Shown here one piece after another: positions 1 to 12,207 of a DNA stretch of 40,241 nucleotides (positions within the stretch are counted from its first letter, which is position 1; each line of letters starts with the position of its first letter). The position numbers were made by a program, and so were the translations under genes. Under the pieces are notes generated by a model. That model was not told the DNA's origin. It worked only from the letters and a program-made list of their open reading frames with translations, and ran no database searches. Origin of the DNA: Gracilaria domingensis (taxonomy: Eukaryota; Rhodophyta; Florideophyceae; Gracilariales; Gracilariaceae); NCBI GenBank assembly GCA_022539475.1, contig VCMS01000459.1:19588-59828 (forward strand), given 5' to 3'.

Positions 1-448
1 AGACAGAACCAAGCAAGAGCTGTACTTGAACTCAGTCACGTACACGAAACAAGGTCCTGGAGGCGATTTGGCTACAGCTGTCGAAACCCGTTGACACTCC
101 CTATGGAGTGCGGTGTGGACTTTTCTGTTGACGAGGAAGTGCTCAGCATGTACGTATGTCATGGCGATTGGCTGCCTCATGTATCAATGTCTGTGGGAAC
201 TCGTCTGGACATCTCATATGCTGTGGCTAAGCCCCTTTGGCCGCCAAGGGTTATGTTTTTTTTTTGAGAGCCGGGAAAACACTCACTGGAAAGGCGGTCA
301 AGCGTGTTCTTCGCCTTCCTCAATGTGCACTAGCCCACGTTCGGGTTGACGTTTATGGCTCCAGCACCGATTTGCACACTGCAGGACGGCTATGGTGGAC
401 TCTGACTGGGGCTGGCTGATGTTGCCAACCGCAAGTCCACTAGTGGAT
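1..448 (+). pseudogene. Copia-A reverse transcriptase/RNase H fragment, left half of split copy A0
   Basis: This is the end of the reverse transcriptase and the start of the RNase H of a Ty1/Copia polyprotein. It matches the better preserved segment at 23,799-23,928 base for base apart from several one-base indels in the first 130 bases. Recognisable stretches, in changing frames, are the family's LYL..S.YT, the TP.ECGVDFSVDE region, RLDISYAVAK, HWKAVKRVLR and finally NRKSTSG, the classic start of Copia RNase H. The reading is cut after codons for TSTSG by the Ty3 element that begins at 449, and resumes at 12,208. The clustered indels mean it cannot encode protein as written; decay and uncorrected sequencing indels are both possible. 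Its 5' part lies outside the window. Confidence 0.85.
444..448. repeat. Target-site duplication of the Ty3 element, left copy
   Basis: TGGAT directly before the LTR's TG; the same five bases follow the 3' LTR at 12203-12207. Removing the element and one copy restores the Copia reading TSG-YLF, which confirms a clean integrase-type insertion. Confidence 0.95.
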
Positions 449-1018
449 TGTAGTATAGCTCGGCCAGATCAACGGGGGCTCTACAAGACCAAGTGGTGAC
501 GTCACGGGCTCCCGGGCACGTGTGTCTACTGTACCACGTGGGACGCGCAAGCGCAGGCTTGGACAGGACTAATTAGTCTATTCTCGATAATTTAGAATTA
601 ATAATTACTAGGTAGTGTAGATATGTGGCCGGGGTGGTGCACCACAAATGCACCTTCCGGTGGCCCACGTGGCACTAGGCCCGTGAGAGCCGGAGGGGCG
701 CTCGGGTGTACTAAACCCCGAGACGCCAACCTCCCACACCAATGGTAAAGTCAAGCACCAACTAGGCTGATTTGACACCAGTTCGGTTCTACAGTCACCA
801 ATTGGTAAGTCTAGTAGTCCTCTAATAGTTTTGCTGACCTCGAGGGTTATACGTGCCTGCCGCACACCAGTGCAGGCGTATTTACCACTTGGTCACCGTG
901 CACTATAGGCAACGGTGGGTGCTGCCGACCTATTAGGTGTCACGCGTTTCACTCCTCCGCCGGGTCGAGCCCACGCGGGGCTCCCCACTAGCAGCTCGCA
1001 CCGATCGGCTATACCACA
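449..1018 (+). repeat. 5' LTR of the Ty3 element
   Basis: 570 bp, starting TGTAGTATAG and ending CTATACCACA (TG...CA). It carries a CRE-type palindrome TGACGTCA, an AT-rich patch around 570-610 that could hold the core promoter (no clean TATA box seen), and three perfect ACCANNTGGT sites at 488, 797 and 884. Relative to the 3' LTR it has one base fewer in the site at 738 (ACCAATGGT), one base fewer in a C run near 716, and two substitutions. Confidence 0.95.
497..504. promoter_or_regulatory. CRE-like palindrome TGACGTCA in the 5' LTR
   Basis: A perfect consensus for bZIP (ATF/CREB-type) proteins. It shares its first T with the ACCAAGTGGT site at 488-497, making a composite of two palindromes. 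It is repeated in the 3' LTR at 11679-11686. Binding is inferred only. Confidence 0.5.
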
Positions 1019-1023
1019 TATTT

Positions 1024-1036
1024 TGGTCTCCCGACC
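1024..1036 (+). other. Putative primer-binding site of the Ty3 element
   Basis: TGGTCTCCCGACC begins five bases after the LTR end. TGG matches the complement of a tRNA CCA end, and the rest predicts a tRNA ending GGTCGGGAGACCA. It is not the initiator-Met sequence; I cannot name the tRNA without the host's tRNA set. Confidence 0.5.
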
Positions 1037-1151
1037 TAGAAATCTGTGGATAACCAAGTGGTTTTGGGAAGGGAGGATTTGGAAGTCACGAGATACCCGA
1101 GTGGTTTGGTTCCCGTTGCCGAAGCAATTGGCTCCGACGCCAGTTACCTAA

Positions 1152-3450
1152 ATGGAGAAACGGGGCGCGCGCTACCCAAATAGGGCGCCGAGCGCTCCAC
1201 CAAGTGGTCACCCCATACGGGGTTCAGTGTCCTATCCGGTGTTGGATAACCCGGAGGACCTGATTCGAAGGAACGCCCACCGAGGGGGAAGAAGGTAGAC
1301 CGAGAGGCTGGGGGGCCCTCGACCATTCCCCGGGCTGACCAAGTGGACGAAGGAGCAGGCTCCGCAAGGGCGGAGCCCGCTCCTGTAACAACCCCAGTGG
1401 TAGACCAAATGGAGGTGCCAGTCGGACCGCGACTGGACTTGGACGAGGTCACCCGAGTGGTAGTTGATCGAGCCTCCCAGGAGGTCCTCGAACAAGGTAC
1501 CTGTGGTGGTGTTCAGTACTTCGAAAACGAGGTGCGAGACACATCGACGCGATTGGTTATGCTTGGCTCTGCAGCAGCAGGGGGCTTAAGCTTCAACCGA
1601 GATGGTGGCCCAGGGGCCGCGCTCACTTGAAGGCAAGCTCCCCGCCTAGCAGTAGAACGCCACCAAACCACTTGTATTTCTCCACCCTAACCTTCCTAAC
1701 AACCGACTGGTGAAGGATTTATCGACCGTATGGGACAAGGGGCAGAGCCCCAGGGATGGAGGGCCCGAGGTACGTTTAGCTCCCCCAACCTAACTGGTGT
1801 AGCTCCGTCGGACCAATGGTGAGACCCTGATGGAGATTCGTCGAGCTGCAGGAGACGGAGCGTCGACCGGTAAACCAATGGTAAAGAAAGAAGAAAACCA
1901 AAAAGGGGAAAGAGAAAGAGTCGCGGTCGGACTCGGACTCTTCGTCCTCAGACAGCCGATTCGGATTTCGTGCAGGAGACGACGACCGGTAGCAGGTTCA
2001 CGACGCAAGCGGAAGGACTCTCGCAAGAAGACAGGAAAGAATCCCCGCAAGGGTAAGCACGGAAAAATGGGTAGAGATCGATTCGTCCTCAACTCCGACG
2101 AGGAGACTGACTATAGAGGTGCTCTTACGTCTCCGCTCATGATTTATTCACACACAGCTGTGTATATGTATATATGTGTAGAGAACAAGACACAGGCCTG
2201 AAGTCTACCAAAGAGGTAGCTCACAGAAGATACAACGAAAGCATCATAGGAAGCTTCGTTTCCAAACCTGGTGAAACTCGCTTTAGCGGGGATGACGCCT
2301 ATTGCGATCATTGATTTCCTTCAAAGGTTCAAGATCGCTTGTGATCAGAATGGGTTTTCAGAGGCAGCAGCCATGTGGCTGTTTCAATTCTACCTAACTG
2401 GTCAGGCTGGAGCGTTGTTCCACAGCCGCCTCCAAGGAAACACCATGGCGGTGGACGAAGACCAAACGGAAATGTTGACAACATACCCACAGGTGGTTAA
2501 CTTCCTACTGGAAACCTACGCGACCGATGAGGTAATCCAGGAGGCGTACGCAGAGGTGCTTGCGTATCGCCAGCGCGCGGACAAACCGAATTGGAATTCG
2601 CTCGCTCCTTATGGGCATTAGTCTCCCGCTGTGGAAGCGTCTTTACTACCAAAAGGTTGAAATCGATGTACGCCGACAACGTGGCGAAGTCTATCCGATC
2701 ACAGGTTCGTAACTACCTAGCTACCAACCGCACGGTCGATTATAACGCACTAGCCCGCCATGCACAGGGACTAGGCGACACCGTTCGGTCAGGGGCCAGG
2801 AAAGACTCCGCACCACTCGGCAAACCATCGAAGGAGAAAGGAAAGACCAGGCGGTCAGTGTTTGACGTAGAGGAAGAGGAGACCACTACGGAGGAGGCGT
2901 CCACACAATACGCCTCCCAGGGTCACCCAGTCCACTTGGTGCATGCGCAACCGACAACTCGATCGCACGGTAATACCTCTTGGTCCAGCTCGCTATCCAG
3001 CGAGCCACCCTCAAGACATACCTCAGCTCCACCATCACAGGTATCCGTACCGGTCAGCCCGGTCCTAGCCGTACCATTCAAGCAATATGGTGAACAAGGA
3101 CCATCCCCGCAGCAACGGAGTGCAGTACCTACTGGAGGCCGTCCCCCATCGCGCGCGTCGTCGCTCGCAATGAAGACCCCACAACCGGCAATCTCCTCTG
3201 TTGGTTCTGTTTGTCGCCCCACCACTTGGCAACAGCGTGCCCAAGTGTGGCTCCGCAGAACAGGAACGCTCTCCTGACTGCTCGCCAGCAGAACCACCAG
3301 GATATATTTGGGCCCCCGGCACGGAGCGCAGGCACGGGACACGCAAATGCGCGACCCAATGCAGCCACACCTCATCAGGTACACCTTGTCACGGAGCAGG
3401 ACCAAACGGATCCCGCCCCGCAGGCGGAAAACGCCGAACAGTTGGGATAG
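1152..3450 (+). pseudogene. gag: Ty3 gag, several frameshifts
   Basis: Gag-type coding sequence scattered over three frames. It starts at a plausible ATG (1152), runs to a stop near 1296, continues in another frame (about 1330-1630) with an acidic D/E/V-rich stretch, then a K/E-rich and S/D-rich segment near 1885-1980 and an R/K-rich one near 2005-2095. A capsid-like part follows at about 2255-2800, with DFLQRFKIACDQ and MWLFQFYLTGQA, where the frame changes near 2300 and near 2600. The end carries a CCHC zinc knuckle (C-X2-C-X4-H-X4-C) at 3199-3240, in a third frame that stops at 3450 and overlaps pol. At least five frame changes are needed, so this copy cannot make Gag as written. The final gag-to-pol step is a -1 shift, as is common in Ty3 elements. 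Several one-base changes could be sequencing indels. Confidence 0.8.
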
Positions 3451-6400
3451 AGGCCTTCCCCAACTGTCCGAAGACGGAAGGCCTTCCAGAACCAAGTGGT
3501 GCAAGTATGGACAATTACCCATTGGTTACAGGGGAGGAGAGCTTCATGGACGGCACCGAACCGATATGCTTTCTCAAGCATAGTAACTATAAGGTAAACG
3601 TCACCCTCGGGTTTACTTCTAACCACTTGGTACCATGCGTCACTGTCCTGGACACCGGGGCAGGACCTAATCTGGTGAATGCCAAACTATTAACTAACAG
3701 ACAACTTAATAAGCTTCAGCCATGTACATTAACTAACCCACTGGTTGACGCCAACAACAGACCACTAACCGTCATGGGAGCGCTTACCATAATGGTATTG
3801 ATTGACACCATGAGGGTCCGAGTTCGCTTCATAGTCGTGAACCAACTGGCAACAGACTGTATCCTCGGCACAACTTTTATAGACCAGTATGTCAGGGCAA
3901 TTTTTCCACGTTCTAAGACAGTTCTGTTCCATAATGGCCCCCGGATCGCCATTATTGGTAACCACAAGGGTGCCTCTACGAAAGAGAACCGCACTCAACA
4001 CCAACCGGTCCCGGAAAACACACTCTCCAACAAGGTGCGATTGGCAAAGGCGGTAACAATACCGCCTATGAACCACTTGGTAGTGAAGGTCACATGCCAA
4101 CAACCTGGCCTGTTATCCATTCAGAACCATTCACGGTTGGCCGAACGACACATGACCTTAATGGCGAATGGTATAGTCGACAACATACCGACAAAACCGT
4201 TTCAGGTCTACCTCAGTAACTTCAGCAACCGCCCGGTCAAGTTGCCAAAACACACCGTAATTGTTCTTGCCTTACCGGCTCCCCGTACGATCTTTACGAT
4301 TACACCACAATGGTCCCACGAGGTCGTGGATGCTAAGGAAGGGGGGGGCAGTGTCAATTCGTTGAATTCGTCGCGAACAGACTATATGGTGCAGCGACTA
4401 GCTGAGCGAGAAGACCAGAAACTGGAGCTCGACCCAGTGACCAATTGGAAGACGGAGGTGAATATAGGACTTGAAGGGGAAGAGCTCAGAGCTCGGATCC
4501 TTGGACTCCTGGAGCCATTCAGTACCATGTGGTCGGGTAAGCTGGGAGCCATTAAGGCCACCCAGCACAGGAGTGACCTCAAACCGGACTCCCGTCCCAT
4601 CCACCAACAGCCATACCGCGCGGGACATAAGACCCGTGAGGTAGAGCTGGAGGAGGTAGAGCGGATGCTCCGCGAGGGGGTTATAGAACCGGCAAACTCG
4701 GAATGGGCTAGCCCTGTAGTGCTAGTCCAAAAACGAGGAGAGACCCGTATGAGGTTCTGTATTGACTACAGAAAACTTAATGCCGTAACGGTAAGGGACT
4801 CGTACCCCATCCCGAGGATGGATGAATGCATCGACTCCCTAGGAGATGCGAACATCTTTACCACACTGGACGCCAACTGCGGGTATTGGCAGATCGAAAT
4901 ACCAGAGGGTGACCGTGATAAGACTGCGTTTACATGCCACGCAGGCCTGTATCGCTTCTTACGCATGCCGTTTGGTTTAAGAAACGCCCCCGCTACCTTC
5001 CAAAGGGCGTTAGACATTATACTGTCTAAAGTGAAGTGGACAACCGCATTGATATACATAGATGACGTAGTCATCTACTCGAGGTCCATAGAGGAGCACT
5101 TCTCGCACGTCCAAGTGGTACTGCAGTTGCTACAAGAGGCAGGCGTGACCCTCAAACTACGAAAGTGTATGTTCTTCAACCAAGAGGTAGAGTACCTAGG
5201 GCATACAATAAGCCCCGGGAAACTCGAAGTGACCAAACGGAATATCCGAGCGGTACAGGAAGCGAAGCTCCCTACGTCGCAGACGGACATACGATCCTTT
5301 ATAGGTCTATGCAACGTCTACCGGCGGTTCATCAAGGGTTTTGCAAAGATAGCCGCACCCCTGAACCGGAGGTTGCAGAAGGGGCAGCCCACACACTTTG
5401 ACCACCTGGAAGAGGACGAGGTAGAGGCGTTCTATACATTGAAAGCAGCGCTTCTCTCCCCACCGGTACTGGCATTGCCCAAAACGGGACTCCCGTATAC
5501 ACTGGACACGGATGCGTCGGACGCCCAAATAGGTTGCTGCCTAATGCAGGAACAGGAGGACGGCAAGCTCGCACCAATTGGGTATTGGAGTAGAGCTCTT
5601 AACCAAGCGGAGCAGAACTACACCGTAACGGAGAAGGAATGCCTAGCGGTTGTTTGGAGCATGCTCATGCTACGTCCCTACCTATATGGTGTGCGCTTCA
5701 CGCTCCGAACGGATCACGACTCCTTGAGGTGGATATTAGGCTTGGCGGACGCATCGGGTCGTCTGGCCCGATGGCGTCTGAGACTCTCGGAGTTTGAGTA
5801 CGATGTGCAGTACCGCCCCGGGGTCAAGCACCGAGTGGCGGATGCATTTTCCCGGTTGAATACCGAAGGATTGGACATTGACCCAGTGGACGACGACATC
5901 CCATGCTTTACTATAGAACCAGCTAACCACGAGGTCAATGAAGTTCTGAAGGGATACTGGCATGATGAAAGTACGTACCAAGTGGTAGTGGAGACCCTCC
6001 TTCCTGTGGAGGAAGGGGAACACGCTCCAATCACCCGTGAGGAATTCTTACGCGAACAATCGACCGATAGGTTGTGCAAAACGCTCGCTGACGTACTTGG
6101 AAGGAAGGATTCTCATTTCGACGTCGACCACAATGGGTACCTCATCAGACGCTCACCTTTAGACGGAGCTCTCCAGAAGGTCGTACCTGAGTCATTAAGA
6201 CAAAGGGTGTTATATCTGTCACACAATCCACGGCTTTCGGGACACCCTGGAGCCACGCGGTTGTACTATACCCTTCGGAGGCAATTCTACTGGCCGCATA
6301 TGGCTAACGATGTATATACCTATGTGGCGCAATGCAATTCGTGCATTAAGACCCGAGGTGGTGTGGCGAAGCACAGGAAGTACCTAAAGCTATTCCCGGC

Positions 6401-7751
6401 GGCGGGGCCCCTGGAATTCGTAGCAATCGACATACTGGGGCCCCTGCCCAAGACCTCAGAGGGTTATCGCTTTGTAGTAGTCATAACCGACAGGTTCACA
6501 AAGCTCACCAGAGCCATACCTCTGAAGAACCAAACGGCAACGACACTAGCGACAGCCTTCCTGGAGAATTGGGTCTACCCGTACGGTGCTCCCATGTACC
6601 TACTGACCGATAACGGTTCGAACCTAGCTTCTAAGTTCTTCGAGGCGGTTTGTACAATGCTAGGGGTCAAGCACTACTTTACCACGGCCTATCATCCTCA
6701 AACAAACGGCCAAGTGGAACGCTTCAATAAGACCCTAGTGGCACGCCTACGGCACTATGTCGAAGAGCACCAAACCACATGGTCGGAGTATGTCCAACCA
6801 TTGACATATGCGTACAACCTCCAGGTCCACAGGGTCACTCAAACAACCCCATTCGACCTGGTACTTTCGCGAACACCACATGGTATTATCGTCCAGCCCG
6901 GACCTGACCGCTCGGAAGCGGCCGGGACACTCACACCGGCGAAGGTCAAGAGAGACATACTCCAGAAGTTACGCGCCGCTTTGGCTGCTGCCAAAGTTAA
7001 GATGACAGCAGCCCAAGAACGATATAAAGCGGACTATGACCGAACGGTGAGCAAAGTGACCAAAGTGGTAGCAGGAGACATGGTCTTCCTTGACGTGCCA
7101 CCAAAAGGTAAGCGACTAACCCCAGCGGAGATGGAAGAGGACATCCGCCTTGAGGAGGATATCAATTCTAAACTACTACCCAAGTCCACGGGACCATACA
7201 AGGTGATTCGCTCCGACGAGCATACCGCTACGGTCATAATGGAAGGTTTGGAGAACACGGTCTCCATCGACAGGATTGTCAAGGCCGCACAACCGACGAC
7301 AGCGAATGCACAACCAATATGTGAGCCAACGCAGCAGGAAGCGGAGAGGGAGCAAACGTCTCCCATACCCCCTCCTATGATGAGTCAGCCGAGCGGTCAA
7401 CCTTCCACCAGAGCCGTAACGGCTGACCCCACGACCCAAGCGGCACAGGAGATCGAGCCTCGGCAAGACCAACGGGTCACACCACCCACGGGGAGCCACG
7501 CACCCCATGACCAAATGGAAGAGTCACACCCTCAAGTAGACACTCAGGAGTGCGCTATTGACACCATTGTAGGTCACGAACACACCACAAAGGGTATGCG
7601 CTACCGGGTGAGATGGTATGGATGGTCGCCCGAGCACGACTCTATGGAACCACCTGGTCATATCCCTAACAACTTCATCATCCGATACTGGCGCAAACAA
7701 GGGCGAACGCCCCCACCAACTGGTATTGCTTCGCGTGGTACGCGTCGCTAA
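3201..7751 (+). CDS. pol: Ty3/Gypsy Pol: protease, reverse transcriptase, RNase H, integrase, chromodomain
   Basis: An uninterrupted frame of 1516 codons. 3201 is only where the open frame starts; the first in-frame ATG is at 3507, and expression probably uses a -1 shift from gag, whose last frame overlaps it to 3450. Numbering from 3201, the aspartic protease has DTGAG with D151. Reverse transcriptase has the catalytic YIDD (D621, D622). RNase H starts at LDTDASDAQIG (D769, D771). Integrase has an N-terminal HHCC zinc finger (first H1008) and the triad D1077, D1137, E1173 with the canonical 35-residue D-E spacing. A chromodomain occupies about 1450-1501 and ends in the typical NFIIRYWRK helix. 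It keeps the VRW tryptophan but has C and M where the first and third cage aromatics usually sit, like group II chromodomains of chromoviruses. The product copies element RNA to cDNA and integrates it. All motifs seen are intact. Confidence 0.95.
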   Translation: MVLFVAPPLGNSVPKCGSAEQERSPDCSPAEPPGYIWAPGTERRHGTRKCATQCSHTSSGTPCHGAGPNGSRPAGGKRRTVGIEAFPNCPKTEGLPEPSGASMDNYPLVTGEESFMDGTEPICFLKHSNYKVNVTLGFTSNHLVPCVTVLDTGAGPNLVNAKLLTNRQLNKLQPCTLTNPLVDANNRPLTVMGALTIMVLIDTMRVRVRFIVVNQLATDCILGTTFIDQYVRAIFPRSKTVLFHNGPRIAIIGNHKGASTKENRTQHQPVPENTLSNKVRLAKAVTIPPMNHLVVKVTCQQPGLLSIQNHSRLAERHMTLMANGIVDNIPTKPFQVYLSNFSNRPVKLPKHTVIVLALPAPRTIFTITPQWSHEVVDAKEGGGSVNSLNSSRTDYMVQRLAEREDQKLELDPVTNWKTEVNIGLEGEELRARILGLLEPFSTMWSGKLGAIKATQHRSDLKPDSRPIHQQPYRAGHKTREVELEEVERMLREGVIEPANSEWASPVVLVQKRGETRMRFCIDYRKLNAVTVRDSYPIPRMDECIDSLGDANIFTTLDANCGYWQIEIPEGDRDKTAFTCHAGLYRFLRMPFGLRNAPATFQRALDIILSKVKWTTALIYIDDVVIYSRSIEEHFSHVQVVLQLLQEAGVTLKLRKCMFFNQEVEYLGHTISPGKLEVTKRNIRAVQEAKLPTSQTDIRSFIGLCNVYRRFIKGFAKIAAPLNRRLQKGQPTHFDHLEEDEVEAFYTLKAALLSPPVLALPKTGLPYTLDTDASDAQIGCCLMQEQEDGKLAPIGYWSRALNQAEQNYTVTEKECLAVVWSMLMLRPYLYGVRFTLRTDHDSLRWILGLADASGRLARWRLRLSEFEYDVQYRPGVKHRVADAFSRLNTEGLDIDPVDDDIPCFTIEPANHEVNEVLKGYWHDESTYQVVVETLLPVEEGEHAPITREEFLREQSTDRLCKTLADVLGRKDSHFDVDHNGYLIRRSPLDGALQKVVPESLRQRVLYLSHNPRLSGHPGATRLYYTLRRQFYWPHMANDVYTYVAQCNSCIKTRGGVAKHRKYLKLFPAAGPLEFVAIDILGPLPKTSEGYRFVVVITDRFTKLTRAIPLKNQTATTLATAFLENWVYPYGAPMYLLTDNGSNLASKFFEAVCTMLGVKHYFTTAYHPQTNGQVERFNKTLVARLRHYVEEHQTTWSEYVQPLTYAYNLQVHRVTQTTPFDLVLSRTPHGIIVQPGPDRSEAAGTLTPAKVKRDILQKLRAALAAAKVKMTAAQERYKADYDRTVSKVTKVVAGDMVFLDVPPKGKRLTPAEMEEDIRLEEDINSKLLPKSTGPYKVIRSDEHTATVIMEGLENTVSIDRIVKAAQPTTANAQPICEPTQQEAEREQTSPIPPPMMSQPSGQPSTRAVTADPTTQAAQEIEPRQDQRVTPPTGSHAPHDQMEESHPQVDTQECAIDTIVGHEHTTKGMRYRVRWYGWSPEHDSMEPPGHIPNNFIIRYWRKQGRTPPPTGIASRGTRR

Positions 7752-7766
7752 GGAAAGGGGGGGGGG
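7751..7766 (+). other. Purine tract with G10 just after pol
   Basis: AGGAAAGGGGGGGGGG directly follows the pol stop. It resembles a polypurine tract, but the one adjoining the 3' LTR is at 11619-11628. It could be a second plus-strand primer or the relic of an ancestral 3' end before the antisense gene region was gained. Confidence 0.4.
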
Positions 7767-7861
7767 TTTATCGAAGCCGTTGAACGCCACGCTACACGAA
7801 AAGCTAACTAACTAACCTAACAGGAAAACAAAAGAAGATCAGAGAACACAGTGCAAGACAC

Positions 7862-7867
7862 TTTATT
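7862..7867 (-). terminator. AATAAA polyadenylation signal for the antisense gene
   Basis: TTTATT on the + strand, AATAAA on the - strand, ends about 40 bases beyond the stop of the antisense reading frame (7906). The position is typical for a eukaryotic poly(A) signal and supports antisense transcription of this region. Confidence 0.55.
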
Positions 7868-7905
7868 AGTCGAGAAGAATCCACGAGAGGGAACCACGAG
7901 GTGAC

Positions 7906-9516
7906 TTAGGAGGCCTTGGAGGACCCACGGCCACGTCCGCGTCCACGACTGGTTCCACGACCGCGACCACGTCCACGGGAGGTCCCGCGAGATGAAGCGG
8001 AACCTCCACGACCAGAGGACACCGACATAGGTCCGGCGGAGCTTCCGCCCCCGCCGCTAGCCGCGCTCGGTGGCGCACCACCACTTGGTAAGGGAGCAGA
8101 AGTACCAGCAGGTCCCGCAGGGGTACCGCTGCTGACTACCGGCATGGTATTCGCAGGACCAGTGGGTGGATGGAAGGAAGGCGGTAAGCTAGACGGAGGG
8201 ATGCCACCAGAGGTCGGAGGAGCAAGACCACTAGACGGCCCTGCACCGGGGGTCAGACCAGTAGGCGGCCTAGGAGCACCGGACGTCGGCGGAAGCGGAG
8301 CCGAACGGAAACCAGTTGAGAAACCACTTGGTGCTCCTGTCCCAGTACTTGCTGGAAGAAGAGGAACGTTGTGAGGACCAAGGTGAGTATGGAAAGGTGC
8401 CGCAGGATCACCACCAGGAGGTCCACCAGGGAGTTGATACGTACCAAGGCCACCAAAGCCTACCATTGGGGTCGCAGGTTGCTGTGACGCAGGAGCGTAC
8501 GGGTTGAAACTTTCCACAGGGGGTCGATGTAACGGCGCGTGGCCTTCCACAAGGTTGCTCAACTGACCAACATAGGCTGTCACCTCACGGTAGAGATTGC
8601 GCTGGAAGTAGTCGCGGAAATGTCGCAGCTCAGAAGTGCGCCGCTCGTGGTGAGCAACCACGGGGAGCAAGTTGGTAAGAGTATCCACAGCGGTGAGGAT
8701 GTCATTGGGACCAGGACGGTTGAAGTGCACCATCGAGGCGTGGTTGAGACCAGCCAGAGCGCTCCGTATCGCGCCACTATCACCACCAGGGGGCACCGGA
8801 TTCACCGGAAGCGACTGGAAACCAACCCGAAGAGGCCCCTGGGCAGCCCGTCCGGGAGGGTGAGCAACCGCCTGAGGGTTCGCCGGACCACTTGGAACAG
8901 GCGCAGCCACGCTGGTCGGAGGAGTAGCCTGTACAGGTGCCGACGGAGGCAATGCGGGGGACTCATAGTTCTCGGCAGCCACCATCACGGTATCGTCATT
9001 ACCAAATGGGTCTTCGCCAGCCATGTGCTGCTGTTGGAGAGGCACGATGCTATGAACCTCCGGGTCGTAGACATCCCAACCCTGTTCAGGCCCCCAATTG
9101 TGGTTACTTACCGCAGTGAGGTAGCCATCCAACTGCTGCGCAGTATATTTGGTGCCCTCCACGATGTTGGAGAGCCCCATGGCACGAATGTCGCCGACCA
9201 CATCGTTGGGAATATTGAAGATACGACCAACTGGTTGAGTTCCGCTGATCCCGACAGACTTGTCAGGGCAGCGCGTGTCCCAAGTCACACCTTCCACGGA
9301 AGCCTGAAGGGCGAGGATAGCCACCATGACGGCCCACTCGCTGCGCGCGACCGACCAAACGGCATATGCGTTGTTCCTCTCGAGGGAGATGCTACTACCA
9401 AAGTACGCAAGGACCGGCGGGATCGGCACTTCCAGCCACTGACATACTTCATAGTGGTCCCACCAGAGGGTCGATTGACATACCATGTCCGGCGGTTGTG
9501 GTCGCTCTGCGACCAA
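7906..9516 (-). CDS. Antisense ORF, C-terminal part: Pro-rich, RG-rich protein of unknown function
   Basis: 536 codons on the strand opposite to pol, between pol and the 3' LTR. Its first ~40 codons overlap the end of the upstream antisense frame (9285-10682), and the two probably form one gene of about 925 codons broken by a missing base near 9440-9490, or joined by a -1 shift. The N-terminal third looks globular (for example YEVCQWLEVPIPPVLAYFG). A middle part has a helical-looking stretch (HFRDYFQRNLYREVTAYVGQ). The C-terminal 200 residues are rich in P, G, S and A and end in repeated RGRGRG units, a typical RNA- or DNA-binding tail. I recognise no family. Extra antisense ORFs in this position are known in some plant LTR elements (Grande). 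A nucleic-acid-binding role is inference. Confidence 0.65.
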   Translation of the reverse strand: MVAERPQPPDMVCQSTLWWDHYEVCQWLEVPIPPVLAYFGSSISLERNNAYAVWSVARSEWAVMVAILALQASVEGVTWDTRCPDKSVGISGTQPVGRIFNIPNDVVGDIRAMGLSNIVEGTKYTAQQLDGYLTAVSNHNWGPEQGWDVYDPEVHSIVPLQQQHMAGEDPFGNDDTVMVAAENYESPALPPSAPVQATPPTSVAAPVPSGPANPQAVAHPPGRAAQGPLRVGFQSLPVNPVPPGGDSGAIRSALAGLNHASMVHFNRPGPNDILTAVDTLTNLLPVVAHHERRTSELRHFRDYFQRNLYREVTAYVGQLSNLVEGHAPLHRPPVESFNPYAPASQQPATPMVGFGGLGTYQLPGGPPGGDPAAPFHTHLGPHNVPLLPASTGTGAPSGFSTGFRSAPLPPTSGAPRPPTGLTPGAGPSSGLAPPTSGGIPPSSLPPSFHPPTGPANTMPVVSSGTPAGPAGTSAPLPSGGAPPSAASGGGGSSAGPMSVSSGRGGSASSRGTSRGRGRGRGTSRGRGRGRGSSKAS

Positions 9517-10682
9517 TACTCAACGTTGTGGAACAGGAACATGGTCCGCGTACGGTTGTTACGGTGACGAACACGGCTCTCAGCCATCGCATCGGTCGCC
9601 CACCTCCCACGGTCAGTCCAATAATTGGTATCTAAAGGGCGCTCAAACGCGACGTACTCCAGATCGACCTCGATGTGCGTAGCAGGTTCGTCCAAGCGGT
9701 GAAGGATATCTACCAAACGGCGGAAGTAGTGGACCTCCCCATCGCAGCGGATGAAGGGGAGATCCGATGGTACGGCCACGGGGATGTAGTATAGGAACTT
9801 CGTGTGTCGCTGCCGCGCATGGAAACACTGTTGTCGACCGAACCGGCTCTGTTTCTCGCCCTTGCGTGGTGGAGGAGGTGCCATAGGCACCGCCTCCAAC
9901 CGGCGACAATCCCAACGGGCAATTGCGGTATACTGCGTGAGACCCATGTGGCGGAACCGCAAGGGACAGAGTGAGGAACTGATGTGGAAAGGCCAGTTCC
10001 CCAGAGCGACCAATTCGGCGGAGATATCGGCAAAGCGTGCACCATAGTGGGCATGCGGCTGCTCGTGCGTCCTATAAAGGTCATGAGGATTCAGCTGTTG
10101 AGCCTCCACCGTACCGGCCACCGCAAGAGGGTTAACGTTGCTCGGACCCGCGGCGGCTGCGTAGGGATCATACCCAGCGCGACCGTAAGGGTCTTGACGA
10201 GAACGCGTACTCGACCGCGTGTTAGGCTTGAAGATGCCACCTCCGCGGCCGCGCGCTACCCCAGGGGTCTTGCCAGACATCCTCGACCGGGAGGCAACAG
10301 TTTCGCGAACCGAACGGTTGACCTCCGCCGAGGGGGAGACTTCAGAAGCCGAATATCCCTTTATAGGGTCGAAGTGCGGCTCCTCCAATACCAAGTGGTT
10401 GGCCTCCACGGGAGCCTCGGCGCCCGATGGAAAGGACACAGGTGTACCGGTCTGGGACGGCAGACAGGGCTGCGAAGAGTCAACCACGTGGTAATTCGAT
10501 TGAAACGGCGCCGTCTCACCCCCGGGGTCCACCACAACGGGAAGGGCGCGCGCGATGCCCTCCTCGGCACCGTCTTCACGGCGTTCGAACGTCATCGACC
10601 ACCCCGTTGGGGAAGCGGGTTGATCACCCATGAGGTATAAAAGGCGCGAGTTGGAGCGAGAGCGTGCCACGGAGGATACCAA
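9285..10682 (-). CDS. Antisense ORF, N-terminal part: unknown protein
   Basis: 465 codons; the authentic product probably uses codons down to about 9460 and then continues in the frame of the 7906-9516 ORF. The start is uncertain: the open frame begins at 10682, and the first downstream ATG (MGDQPASP) is at 10628. The N-terminal ~130 residues look disordered. A basic G/R-rich stretch (GVARGRGGGIFKPNTRSS) and a Y/A/P-rich linker follow. The rest looks like a folded domain with many W, Y, F and R residues (NWPFHISS, VHYFRRLVDILHRLDEP, TMFLFHNVEYW). No transmembrane segment, zinc finger or protease motif is visible. It resembles no family I know; a capsid-like or DNA/RNA-binding role would be a guess. 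The + strand reading of the same DNA is shorter and broken up. Confidence 0.6.
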   Translation of the reverse strand: MVSSVARSRSNSRLLYLMGDQPASPTGWSMTFERREDGAEEGIARALPVVVDPGGETAPFQSNYHVVDSSQPCLPSQTGTPVSFPSGAEAPVEANHLVLEEPHFDPIKGYSASEVSPSAEVNRSVRETVASRSRMSGKTPGVARGRGGGIFKPNTRSSTRSRQDPYGRAGYDPYAAAAGPSNVNPLAVAGTVEAQQLNPHDLYRTHEQPHAHYGARFADISAELVALGNWPFHISSSLCPLRFRHMGLTQYTAIARWDCRRLEAVPMAPPPPRKGEKQSRFGRQQCFHARQRHTKFLYYIPVAVPSDLPFIRCDGEVHYFRRLVDILHRLDEPATHIEVDLEYVAFERPLDTNYWTDRGRWATDAMAESRVRHRNNRTRTMFLFHNVEYWSQSDHNRRTWYVNRPSGGTTMKYVSGWKCRSRRSLRTLVVASPSRGTTHMPFGRSRAASGPSWWLSSPFRLPWKV

Positions 10683-11618
10683 CCGAGAGGGGGAACACCA
10701 CCAATTGGATGACTAGATGAAACCTGAGGGGTCACAGAGAACGGGCACGCCGCTCGAGCGAGCTGAAACACCGTGAAAATGACCAGGGTGGTGCGCCGGC
10801 TGGACGGGTTCCGTGAACCAGGGAGGGTACAACCACCCCAGAGGGAACCTAAGGGACGGAAGGAGACCGCGAGGAACCAGGTGGAGGGGCGCTGAACGCC
10901 ACGCAGTCGGGTAAACCCCTCGGCTGGACCTGAATCAAGCCTGAACACCCCGATGAGGCAGACCACTAGGTAGAAGCGGCGTCAGCACCGGTACGGTCAC
11001 GAAGTCTGAAGAGCCACGGGCAGGAGTCTCCTCACCCTCGACGCGGCCGCCCAAGGCAACGACACCCCAGTGGCGCCCTCACTCAAGCGGAGAGACAGTA
11101 CGTGTCGGAACCAACGAGGTATCACCTCAGTACGGCACAAGACCAAGTGGCCAACAGAGAATAGGAGCGACACCACGAGAGGGCGGTGTGCCGATCGGTT
11201 GACAACTGCGAACCCCACCGAAGGGAGGCTCGAAACCAACTGGTAAGCCGGGACTAACCCGCCCAGGGGGAGGACGGACAGGGGAAGATAAAGTGACGGA
11301 CTCCTTCGGGAGGGACCAAAGAGGCGAAGACAACCACGTGGTACCAGGCGCGCGACAAGATCAACCTGAATGGTCGCGGTTCGCGGTTTCGCGTTCCAAT
11401 ACCACGAGGGACGGAAGGTACGATCGCACCTACCACAGGGGGGTACGGCGGCGTGGGTAATGGCGCTGCAGTGCATGTGGCGAACCGCGCCGTGCACCGC
11501 GCCATCTTCGCGTCATCGCGAGACGCGCCGTGCGCCAGGCGATGCGCGCCGACGACCGTTTGGTGAAAAGGCGGCAAACGCCGTGGGACCTTCGCAGCCA
11601 CGGGGCGTGCCTGTCGGT
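10683..11618. other. GC-rich non-coding 3' region, upstream of the antisense gene
   Basis: Between the antisense ORF start and the polypurine tract. A 166-codon - strand frame (10997-11497) exists but looks like a chance GC-rich frame with no recognisable features. Two perfect ACCANNTGGT sites (11235, 11333) and four one-mismatch sites (10699, 10876, 10962, 11142) lie here, where the antisense promoter would be expected. I see no clear TATA box in - orientation. 11,490-11,560 is very rich in CGCG and short inverted repeats. Confidence 0.5.
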
Positions 11619-11628
11619 AGGAGGGGGG
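11619..11628 (+). other. Polypurine tract of the Ty3 element
   Basis: AGGAGGGGGG, two bases before the TG of the 3' LTR; plus-strand cDNA primer. Confidence 0.85.
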
Positions 11629-11630
11629 TC

Positions 11631-12202
11631 TGTAGTATAGCTCGGCCAGATCAACGGGGGCTCTACAAGACCAAGTGGTGACGTCACGGGCTCCCGGGCA
11701 CGTGTGTCTACTGTACCACGTGGGACGCGCAAGCGCAGGCTTGGACAGGACTAATTAGTCTATTCTCGATAATTTAGAATTAATAATTACTAGGTAGTGT
11801 AGATATGTGGCCGGGGTGGTGCACCACAAATGCACCTCCCGGTGGCCCACGTGGCACTAGGCCCGTGAAAGCCGGAGGGGCGCTCGGGTGTACTAAACCC
11901 CCGAGACGCCAACCTCCCACACCAAATGGTAAAGTCAAGCACCAACTAGGCTGATTTGACACCAGTTCGGTTCTACAGTCACCAATTGGTAAGTCTAGTA
12001 GTCCTCTAATAGTTTTGCTGACCTCGAGGGTTATACGTGCCTGCCGCACACCAGTGCAGGCGTATTTACCACTTGGTCACCGTGCACTATAGGCAACGGT
12101 GGGTGCTGCCGACCTATTAGGTGTCACGCGTTTCACTCCTCCGCCGGGTCGAGCCCACGCGGGGCTCCCCACTAGCAGCTCGCACCGATCGGCTATACCA
12201 CA
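11631..12202 (+). repeat. 3' LTR of the Ty3 element
   Basis: 572 bp, TG...CA, about 99% identical to the 5' LTR. It has four perfect ACCANNTGGT sites (11670, 11921, 11981, 12068); the one at 11921 is the full 10-mer where the 5' LTR has a 9-mer. The CRE palindrome is at 11679-11686. Confidence 0.95.
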
Positions 12203-12207
12203 TGGAT
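12203..12207. repeat. Target-site duplication of the Ty3 element, right copy
   Basis: TGGAT, identical to 444-448. Confidence 0.95.

What the first reader, a model, noticed from the sequence alone, without database searches (positions are those of the whole stretch)
488..12077. A 10-bp palindrome, ACCANNTGGT, is scattered through the whole Ty3 element
I count 25 perfect copies in 11.75 kb against about 0.18 expected for eight fixed bases, plus about twenty one-mismatch copies. I saw none in the other 28 kb. Sites occur in LTRs, pol, the antisense gene and non-coding DNA. In pol they fall in all three codon phases and give unrelated peptides (PSG, NHLV, TMW, YQVV), so selection or a mutational process acts on the DNA or RNA, not the protein. 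Each contains an E-box core, and half have AG/CT centres. Such dispersed marking by one word recalls the short motifs in Arabidopsis VANDAL elements bound by the element's own VANC anti-silencing protein. Here it could be a binding site for a host or element protein controlling silencing, insulation, nuclear position or packaging.
Basis: partly seen in the sequence, partly recalled or inferred. Interest (0 to 1): 0.92.

Follow-up and report, generated by a model that had tools for sequence, protein, structure and literature searches.

The report
Family-specific DNA tags throughout retrotransposons
A group of jumping genes in what looks like an alga is written from end to end, even inside its protein code, with a short mirror-image DNA word that differs between its families, as if each family marked its own DNA for a protein that recognises it.

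Summary
ACCANNTGGT occurs 25 times, all in one LTR element (449-12202), none in the other 28 kb; with the LTR counted once, 21 against at most 5 in simulations. The real motif is broader: an everted dyad, ACC-N4-GGT (58 inside, 0 outside) or ACC-N5-GGT (39 and 7). It beats synonymous-codon shuffles in pol (z 9.7). Related Ty3 families in the same genome carry other dyads of the same build: CCG-N3-5-CGG, CCG-N2-CGG, CCT-N2-AGG/CCA-N1-TGG (weaker), CCC-N3-5-GGG. Classes with several loci are single branches in both pol and antisense-protein trees. Five other Ty3 elements and five copia-region stretches show no such dyad. Within a class, fourfold-degenerate bases inside dyads are conserved (78 of 94, 58.9 expected); between classes they are not (36 of 109, 32.1 expected). 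RNA hairpins, codon bias and the E-box reading fail. Best explanation: a class-specific dimeric DNA-binding protein, most likely the product of the conserved antisense gene, coats the element's own DNA, as VANC does in VANDAL elements. Binding was not tested; binder and purpose are inferred.

The parts
449..12202 (+). Ty3 chromovirus LTR element carrying the dispersed dyads
   Evidence: LTR repeats; TG..CA ends and 5-bp target duplication; pol domains with chromodomain
444..448 (.). target-site duplication TGGAT, left copy (right copy 12203-12207)
   Evidence: 5-bp duplications also in the 4 of 10 other copies for which both ends were found
449..1018 (+). 5' LTR; ACCANNTGGT at 488, 797, 884; 12.3 class-A dyads per kb
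1019..1802 (+). leader; ACCANNTGGT at 1053, 1199; about 10 dyads per kb
1803..3173 (+). region with the gag frames (similarity to gag of other families from about 2250), in more than one frame in this copy; no perfect ACCANNTGGT but 7.3 ACC-N4/5-GGT dyads per kb
3174..7751 (+). pol ORF (RT, RNase H, integrase, chromodomain); 33 class-A dyads against 8.1 in synonymous shuffles; ACCANNTGGT at 3491, 3622, 4072, 4524, 5977, 6774, 6875, 7649, 7715
7906..9516 (-). antisense gene, downstream frame; 14 dyads in the ORF against 4.0 in synonymous shuffles
9285..10682 (-). antisense gene, upstream frame; the gene is split in this copy, while one of two other copies read has a single 941-aa frame; 8 dyads in the ORF against 1.9
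10713..11630 (.). region between antisense gene start and 3' LTR; 9.8 dyads per kb; ACCANNTGGT at 11235, 11333
11631..12202 (+). 3' LTR; ACCANNTGGT at 11670, 11921, 11981, 12068; 14 dyads per kb

Best explanation
The word is one form of a dispersed, class-specific recognition site for a dimeric double-stranded-DNA-binding protein. Shown: every sampled family of this Ty3 clade carries, in coding and non-coding DNA, an everted CC-Nk-GG dyad whose neighbour base and spacing are typical of its class; the dyads exceed codon-preserving controls in pol; and they are kept at synonymous positions within a class and lost between classes. Inferred: the binder is encoded by the element, most likely by the conserved antisense gene, whose protein evolves faster than pol and falls into the same classes. 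It would coat the element's own DNA (median gap between sites about 90 bp, mean 121) and mark it as self, most plausibly to oppose host silencing as VANC does in VANDAL elements. Protecting or guiding the cDNA is the second choice.
For: The best inverted triplet pair is a CC..GG dyad in 15 of 15 in-clade loci; half-split replication at ranks 1-3 of 576 for classes A, B, E and most of C; codon-shuffle z of 5.0 to 12.8 in the largest pol ORF of 13 of 14 loci, 4.4 in the other; 0 of 10 control stretches; fourfold conservation within class 78 of 94 against 58.9 (0 of 20,000 shuffles), between classes 36 of 109 against 32.1; classes are single branches in both trees. The dyad is symmetric, occurs only in the CC..GG orientation (GGT-N4-ACC 2 against background 7.9) and is not wobble-tolerant, as for dsDNA. 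The antisense gene is an open frame of 574-827 aa in classes B, C and D and of 941 aa in one class A copy; dN/dS is 0.22 for the one pair far from saturation.
Against: No binding datum. The antisense protein has no recognisable DNA-binding domain and the one structure model, of half the protein, is useless (mean pLDDT 31). In classes C and D the antisense ORF itself carries few dyads (z -0.8 to 3.8). Class D fails half-split replication in most halves. In class E only a broken antisense gene was seen. Some off-diagonal enrichment exists (W pol class B z 5.2 and C 3.4; L035 class B 3.8). Among 29 young copies, dyad columns vary as often as others (6 of 174, 6.5 expected), as expected if inserted copies decay neutrally. 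Two elements with near-equal pol but very different antisense genes share one dyad class (L038, L040), so the link between protein and motif is not proven.
Confidence: 0.5

Rival explanations
1. A family of host transcription or architectural factors binds the dyads, and each element lineage has adapted to a different host factor (insulator, enhancer or nuclear-position role).
For: Everted short half-sites with loose spacing are typical of dimeric transcription factors (recalled). The enrichment could serve any protein that benefits the element.
Against: At least four well-supported dyads (A, B, C, E) and a weaker fifth in one genome, each limited to one element clade, need as many host factors; the motif is not in the five other Ty3 elements or the copia stretches looked at.
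Confidence: 0.25
2. The dyads serve the reverse-transcribed cDNA: an element protein (integrase, Gag or the antisense product) coats the linear dsDNA to protect it, carry it to the nucleus or stop it integrating into itself.
For: Sites run the whole length, densest in the LTRs (12.3 and 14 per kb), and every class has its own type.
Against: No direct evidence; a coating role does not by itself call for specificity to differ between families.
Confidence: 0.15
3. The dyads are RNA hairpins or packaging signals in the genomic transcript.
For: ACC-N4-GGT could close a 3-bp stem.
Against: The equally stable GGT-N4-ACC form occurs 2 times against a background of 7.9; wobble-compatible variants are not favoured (ACT..GGT 2 against 3.5; GCC..GGT 8 against 4.0, like TCC 9 against 3.7 and CCC 11 against 4.4); the preferred inner A..T would leave a 2-nt loop; centres AG and CT are about equally common (7 and 6).
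Confidence: 0.03
4. The dyads are preferred integration targets, so that the element nests in its own copies.
For: Weakly palindromic target sites are usual for integrases (recalled); the window copy sits at the edge of a CC-N6-GG palindrome in a copia element.
Against: None of the 5 insertion sites with both ends (window plus 4 of 10 other copies) holds ACC-N4-GGT or ACC-N5-GGT within 45 bp; n is small.
Confidence: 0.04
5. Codon bias, protein constraint or a sequence-specific mutational process made the word.
For: The element is rich in ACC and GGT triplets (background 7.7 against 3.3 expected from composition).
Against: Synonymous shuffles, all codon phases, presence in LTRs and non-coding DNA, conservation only within a class.
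Confidence: 0.03

Closest known systems
VANDAL21/VANDAL6 elements and their VANC proteins (Arabidopsis; PMC5735166, passages read)
   Same: One short motif at high density in one family, a different motif in a related family; an extra element gene is the candidate reader.
   Different: VANDALs are Mutator-like DNA elements (recalled); their motifs are in one orientation, in tandem repeats of non-coding DNA. Here LTR retrotransposons carry symmetric dyads one by one, also inside codons. VANC binding is shown; here it is not.
Retand Ty3 elements with antisense TRP28 genes (plants; PMC11963269, passages read)
   Same: A gene antisense to gag-pol between pol and the 3' LTR, predicted there to bind DNA.
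   Different: No Pfam family above cut-off, hence no TRP28, in the antisense proteins scanned here; this is a chromodomain element; the passages read describe tandem repeats but no dispersed dyad.
En/Spm TnpA and Ac transposase binding sites (maize; recalled, no call)
   Same: An element protein recognises many short copies of one word in its own element.
   Different: Those sites lie near the ends and serve transposition; these run the whole length of a retrotransposon.
Everted-repeat sites of Zn2Cys6 factors such as Leu3 (recalled, no call)
   Same: Everted CCG..CGG triplets with a short spacer, as in class B.
   Different: No Zn2Cys6 match in this genome, but the control genomes were silent too; other classes use ACC..GGT and CCT..AGG.

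Membership tests
Ty3 chromovirus LTR retrotransposon | RT, RNase H and integrase in Ty3 order with a chromodomain, LTRs with TG..CA, 5-bp duplication | tested here: met
VANDAL/VANC anti-silencing system | Mutator-like DNA transposon | tested here: not met
   LTRs and Ty3 pol
VANDAL/VANC anti-silencing system | short motif at high density limited to one family, different in related families | tested here: met
VANDAL/VANC anti-silencing system | motifs in non-coding tandem repeats in one orientation | tested here: not met
   symmetric sites dispersed in coding and non-coding DNA, median gap 90.5 bp
VANDAL/VANC anti-silencing system | element protein binds the motif and removes DNA methylation | not testable with these tools
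   no binding or methylation data
Retand with TRP28 antisense gene | antisense gene between pol and 3' LTR | tested here: met
Retand with TRP28 antisense gene | TRP28 domain (PF04195) | tested here: not met
   no Pfam family above cut-off in the nine antisense proteins or halves scanned
E-box sites of host bHLH proteins | CANNTG core kept in related elements | tested here: not met
   CCG-N3-5-CGG, CCG-N2-CGG and CCC-N3-5-GGG classes lack it
Zn2Cys6 everted-repeat sites | Zn2Cys6 protein in the genome or element | tested here: inconclusive
   0 matches for PF00172, but the 14 control genomes were silent as well

The most novel reading that the evidence does not exclude
A clade of LTR retrotransposons runs a self-recognition code: each family encodes, antisense to pol, a protein of an undescribed family that reads the family's own everted dyad, and protein and dyad have changed together several times (four label changes on the trees), with the dyads rewritten through the coding sequence by synonymous changes. 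It would be a retroelement counterpart of VANC, evolved independently and working along the whole element.
Probability: 0.4. Interest if true: 0.93.

Novelty: new variant of a known kind. Interest (0 to 1): 0.82.

Why it matters
How a transposon protein can pick out its own copies and yet change targets is an open question raised by VANC (PMC5735166, passages read). Here several classes in one genome give a natural series of recognition words and candidate readers that can be tested pair by pair. It would also show a retrotransposon keeping protein code and DNA-binding code in the same bases.

Tried and rejected
E-box/bHLH sites: dropped, since sister classes use other dyads. RNA hairpins: rejected by orientation and wobble tests. 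Codon or protein constraint: rejected. Integration-target idea: no support in 5 insertion sites. Helical or nucleosome phasing: 10 periods tried; only 10.2 stood out, and the pairs are not independent, so not used. Lower variation of dyads among 29 young copies: not seen by column (6 of 174 against 6.5) or by cell (50 against 52.4), although fourfold cells were 1 of 691 against 14.7; shared ancestry makes the cell counts unreliable. Homologues of the antisense gene: none among the about 8000 best candidates scored in each of two searches of a 5.8-billion-protein database; none in PHROGs; Pfam only below cut-off (best Prominin, E 0.009, in the helical tail of L042); in the PDB only generic helical matches, best E 0.07. 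Relatives in viral contigs: none close. Structure of one antisense half: mean pLDDT 31, not used. Host identity: 11 light-harvesting matches over the cut-off suggest an alga; a red alga is a guess, and Gracilaria domingensis (78 Mb, recalled) was not confirmed.
Full report
Observation. ACCANNTGGT occurs 25 times in the window, at 488 to 12068, and nowhere in the other 28 kb. The element is 449-12202: LTRs 449-1018 and 11631-12202 begin TG and end CA, with the 5-bp duplication TGGAT, and it sits in a copia element. Its pol has RT, RNase H, integrase and a chromodomain. Counting the LTR once leaves 21 sites; 600 simulated sequences (Markov order 1, 2, 3; 200 each) gave means of 0.25, 0.72 and 0.97 and never more than 5, and the word ranks first of all 4+gap+4 words with gap 0-10.

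What the motif really is. A scan of all triplets with their reverse complement at each spacing shows ACC-N4-GGT (53 with one LTR, 3.3 expected from composition), ACC-N5-GGT (36) and ACC-N6-GGT (17). Measured against the same triplets at wider spacings the background is 7.7. With both LTRs, ACC-N4-GGT is 58 inside and 0 outside, ACC-N5-GGT 39 and 7, ACC-N6-GGT 17 and 5. Density of the first two is 5.6 to 14 per kb in every part, highest in the LTRs; the median gap is 90.5 bp, the mean 121. The GG and CC bases are nearly obligatory and the outer T/A is preferred. CC-N4-GG stands at 193 while GG-Nk-CC stays between 43 and 102 at spacings 0-14, 96 at N4; GGT-N4-ACC is 2 against 7.9.

Related families. 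The host genome (77.9 Mb, 680 contigs) holds many copies: an RT search scored 104 of 2625 candidates, from identical to 62 percent. Thirty pol stretches of 4.2 kb, one of them the window's own, and 14 longer stretches of sister and cousin families were fetched. Sisters L035 and L036 carry ACC-N5-GGT and ACC-N4-GGT (54 and 42; 48 and 41). The more distant families do not: L037 and L038 hold 0 ACCANNTGGT in 10 kb each. Their own dyads are CCG-N4/3/5-CGG in L038, L039, L040, L048; CCG-N2-CGG with CGTACG (together CCGTACGG) in L037, L043, L044; CCT-N2-AGG with CCA-N1-TGG in L041, L042, L046 and CCA-N1-TGG in L045; CCC-N3/5/4-GGG in L047. I call these classes A to E. In 15 of 15 loci (window plus 14) the best inverted triplet pair is an everted CC..GG form when measured against wider spacings (L036 against composition only; against composition L037's best is CGTACG). 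Genome-wide, ACCANNTGGT is 4164 against 1620 reversed, ACCNNNNGGT 21944 against 18689, CCGTACGG 1280 against 745.

Controls. Synonymous shuffles (300 per ORF) give, in the largest pol ORF of each locus, class A z 9.7 (W), 8.8 (L035) and 4.4 (L036); class B 12.8, 10.9, 7.7 and 6.6; class C 7.5, 7.1 and 6.7; class D 6.0, 8.3 and 7.7; class E 5.0; L046 had no pol ORF long enough. Off-diagonal pol values at or above 3.0 are W (B 5.2, C 3.4), L035 (B 3.8), L043 (E 3.0, and D 3.7 in a small ORF) and L048 (E 3.3). The classes were defined on the same loci, so I split each locus in halves: the best of 576 dyads in one half ranked 1 to 3 in the other for all class A, B and E loci and for L037 and L044; L043 gave 14 and 6; class D was weak (L041 77 and 337, L042 19 and 2, L045 10 and 95, L046 114 and 51); in 8 controls the best of 16 ranks was 9. 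Ten in-clade 4-kb stretches all exceed their own 20 shuffles, L041 and L045 narrowly; five other Ty3 elements (pol about 33 percent identical) and five stretches of the window's copia region do not. Those control stretches cover pol, so whether these elements have an antisense gene is not settled.

Selection. At fourfold-degenerate positions of conserved codons, bases inside dyads are identical within a class in 78 of 94 cases against 58.9 in base-matched shuffles (0 of 20,000 as high; five comparisons; single P 0.008, 0.0007, 0.04, 0.58, 0.07). Between classes it is 36 of 109 against 32.1 (P 0.22; six comparisons, some sharing a locus). Six further same-class comparisons were left out of the pool because they reuse a locus; all lie above expectation (53 of 53 against 49.5; 35 of 36 against 32.1; 27 of 27 against 26.7; 15 of 17 against 12.2; 10 of 20 against 7.0; 1 of 1 against 0.4). 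Sites are thus kept in a class and lost across classes. Sites also turn over: between W and L035, 7 of 21 alignable pol sites are at the same place though the two ORFs carry 33 and 29. Among 29 young copies dyad columns are not less variable (6 of 174, 6.5 expected), as expected if inserted copies decay neutrally.

The antisense gene. Between pol and the 3' LTR a gene runs the other way. It is split in the window copy and in L071 but is one 941-aa frame in L070. Relatives are open frames of 574 to 827 aa in classes B, C and D; in class E only a broken one was seen. Six of its proteins align over a conserved region of about 380 residues followed by a variable tail. It matches no Pfam family above cut-off, no PHROG, no PDB sequence beyond generic helices (best E 0.07), and nothing among the about 8000 candidates scored in each of two searches of 5.8 billion proteins. 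dN/dS is 0.22 for L043-L044, the one pair far from saturation, so it is a kept protein. Classes A to D are one branch each in the antisense and the pol tree (class A in the antisense tree is two copies of one family; class E is one locus); four label changes suffice for all five classes.

Mechanism. Symmetry, single orientation, lack of wobble tolerance and spread over all regions point to a dimer on double-stranded DNA. Because sites are kept by selection, the binder should help the element. That classes differ within one genome points to an element-encoded binder, and the antisense protein is the best candidate. This last step is inference: no binding was tested. The nearest precedent is VANC of VANDAL elements (PMC5735166, passages read; PMC10398659, passages), and Retand elements show that antisense genes with predicted DNA binding exist (PMC11963269, passages). 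Searches for a printed description of such dispersed dyads in retrotransposons found none (listings only, open-licence papers only).

Noticed in passing
L038 and L040: pol is nearly the same (dS 0.11) but the antisense genes are saturated at synonymous sites, as if the antisense module had been exchanged between families of the same dyad class.
   Followed up: partly
L037, L041, L043, L044: In these class C and D loci the antisense ORF has few dyads (0.9 to 2.0 per kb) while pol has 5.0 to 7.2.
   Followed up: no
window 7906-9516 (-) and L043, L044: The antisense protein ends in an arginine-glycine-rich tail in these copies.
   Followed up: no
window 12099-40096: The rest of the window holds several copia-type gag and pol ORFs; the Ty3 element is inserted in one of them.
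   Followed up: partly
window 444-448 and flank: The window copy lies at the edge of a TCCACTAGTGGA palindrome of the copia target; the other four sites read show no CC-N3-7-GG at the junction itself.
   Followed up: partly
G000:C459:9235-10434: Another copy with 99 percent RT identity lies on the same contig before the window.
   Followed up: no
metagenome proteins P0001-P0120: Pol relatives up to 63 percent identical occur in environmental contigs, mostly 4 to 20 kb long and mostly unnamed (120 of 1528 listed); no context available here.
   Followed up: no
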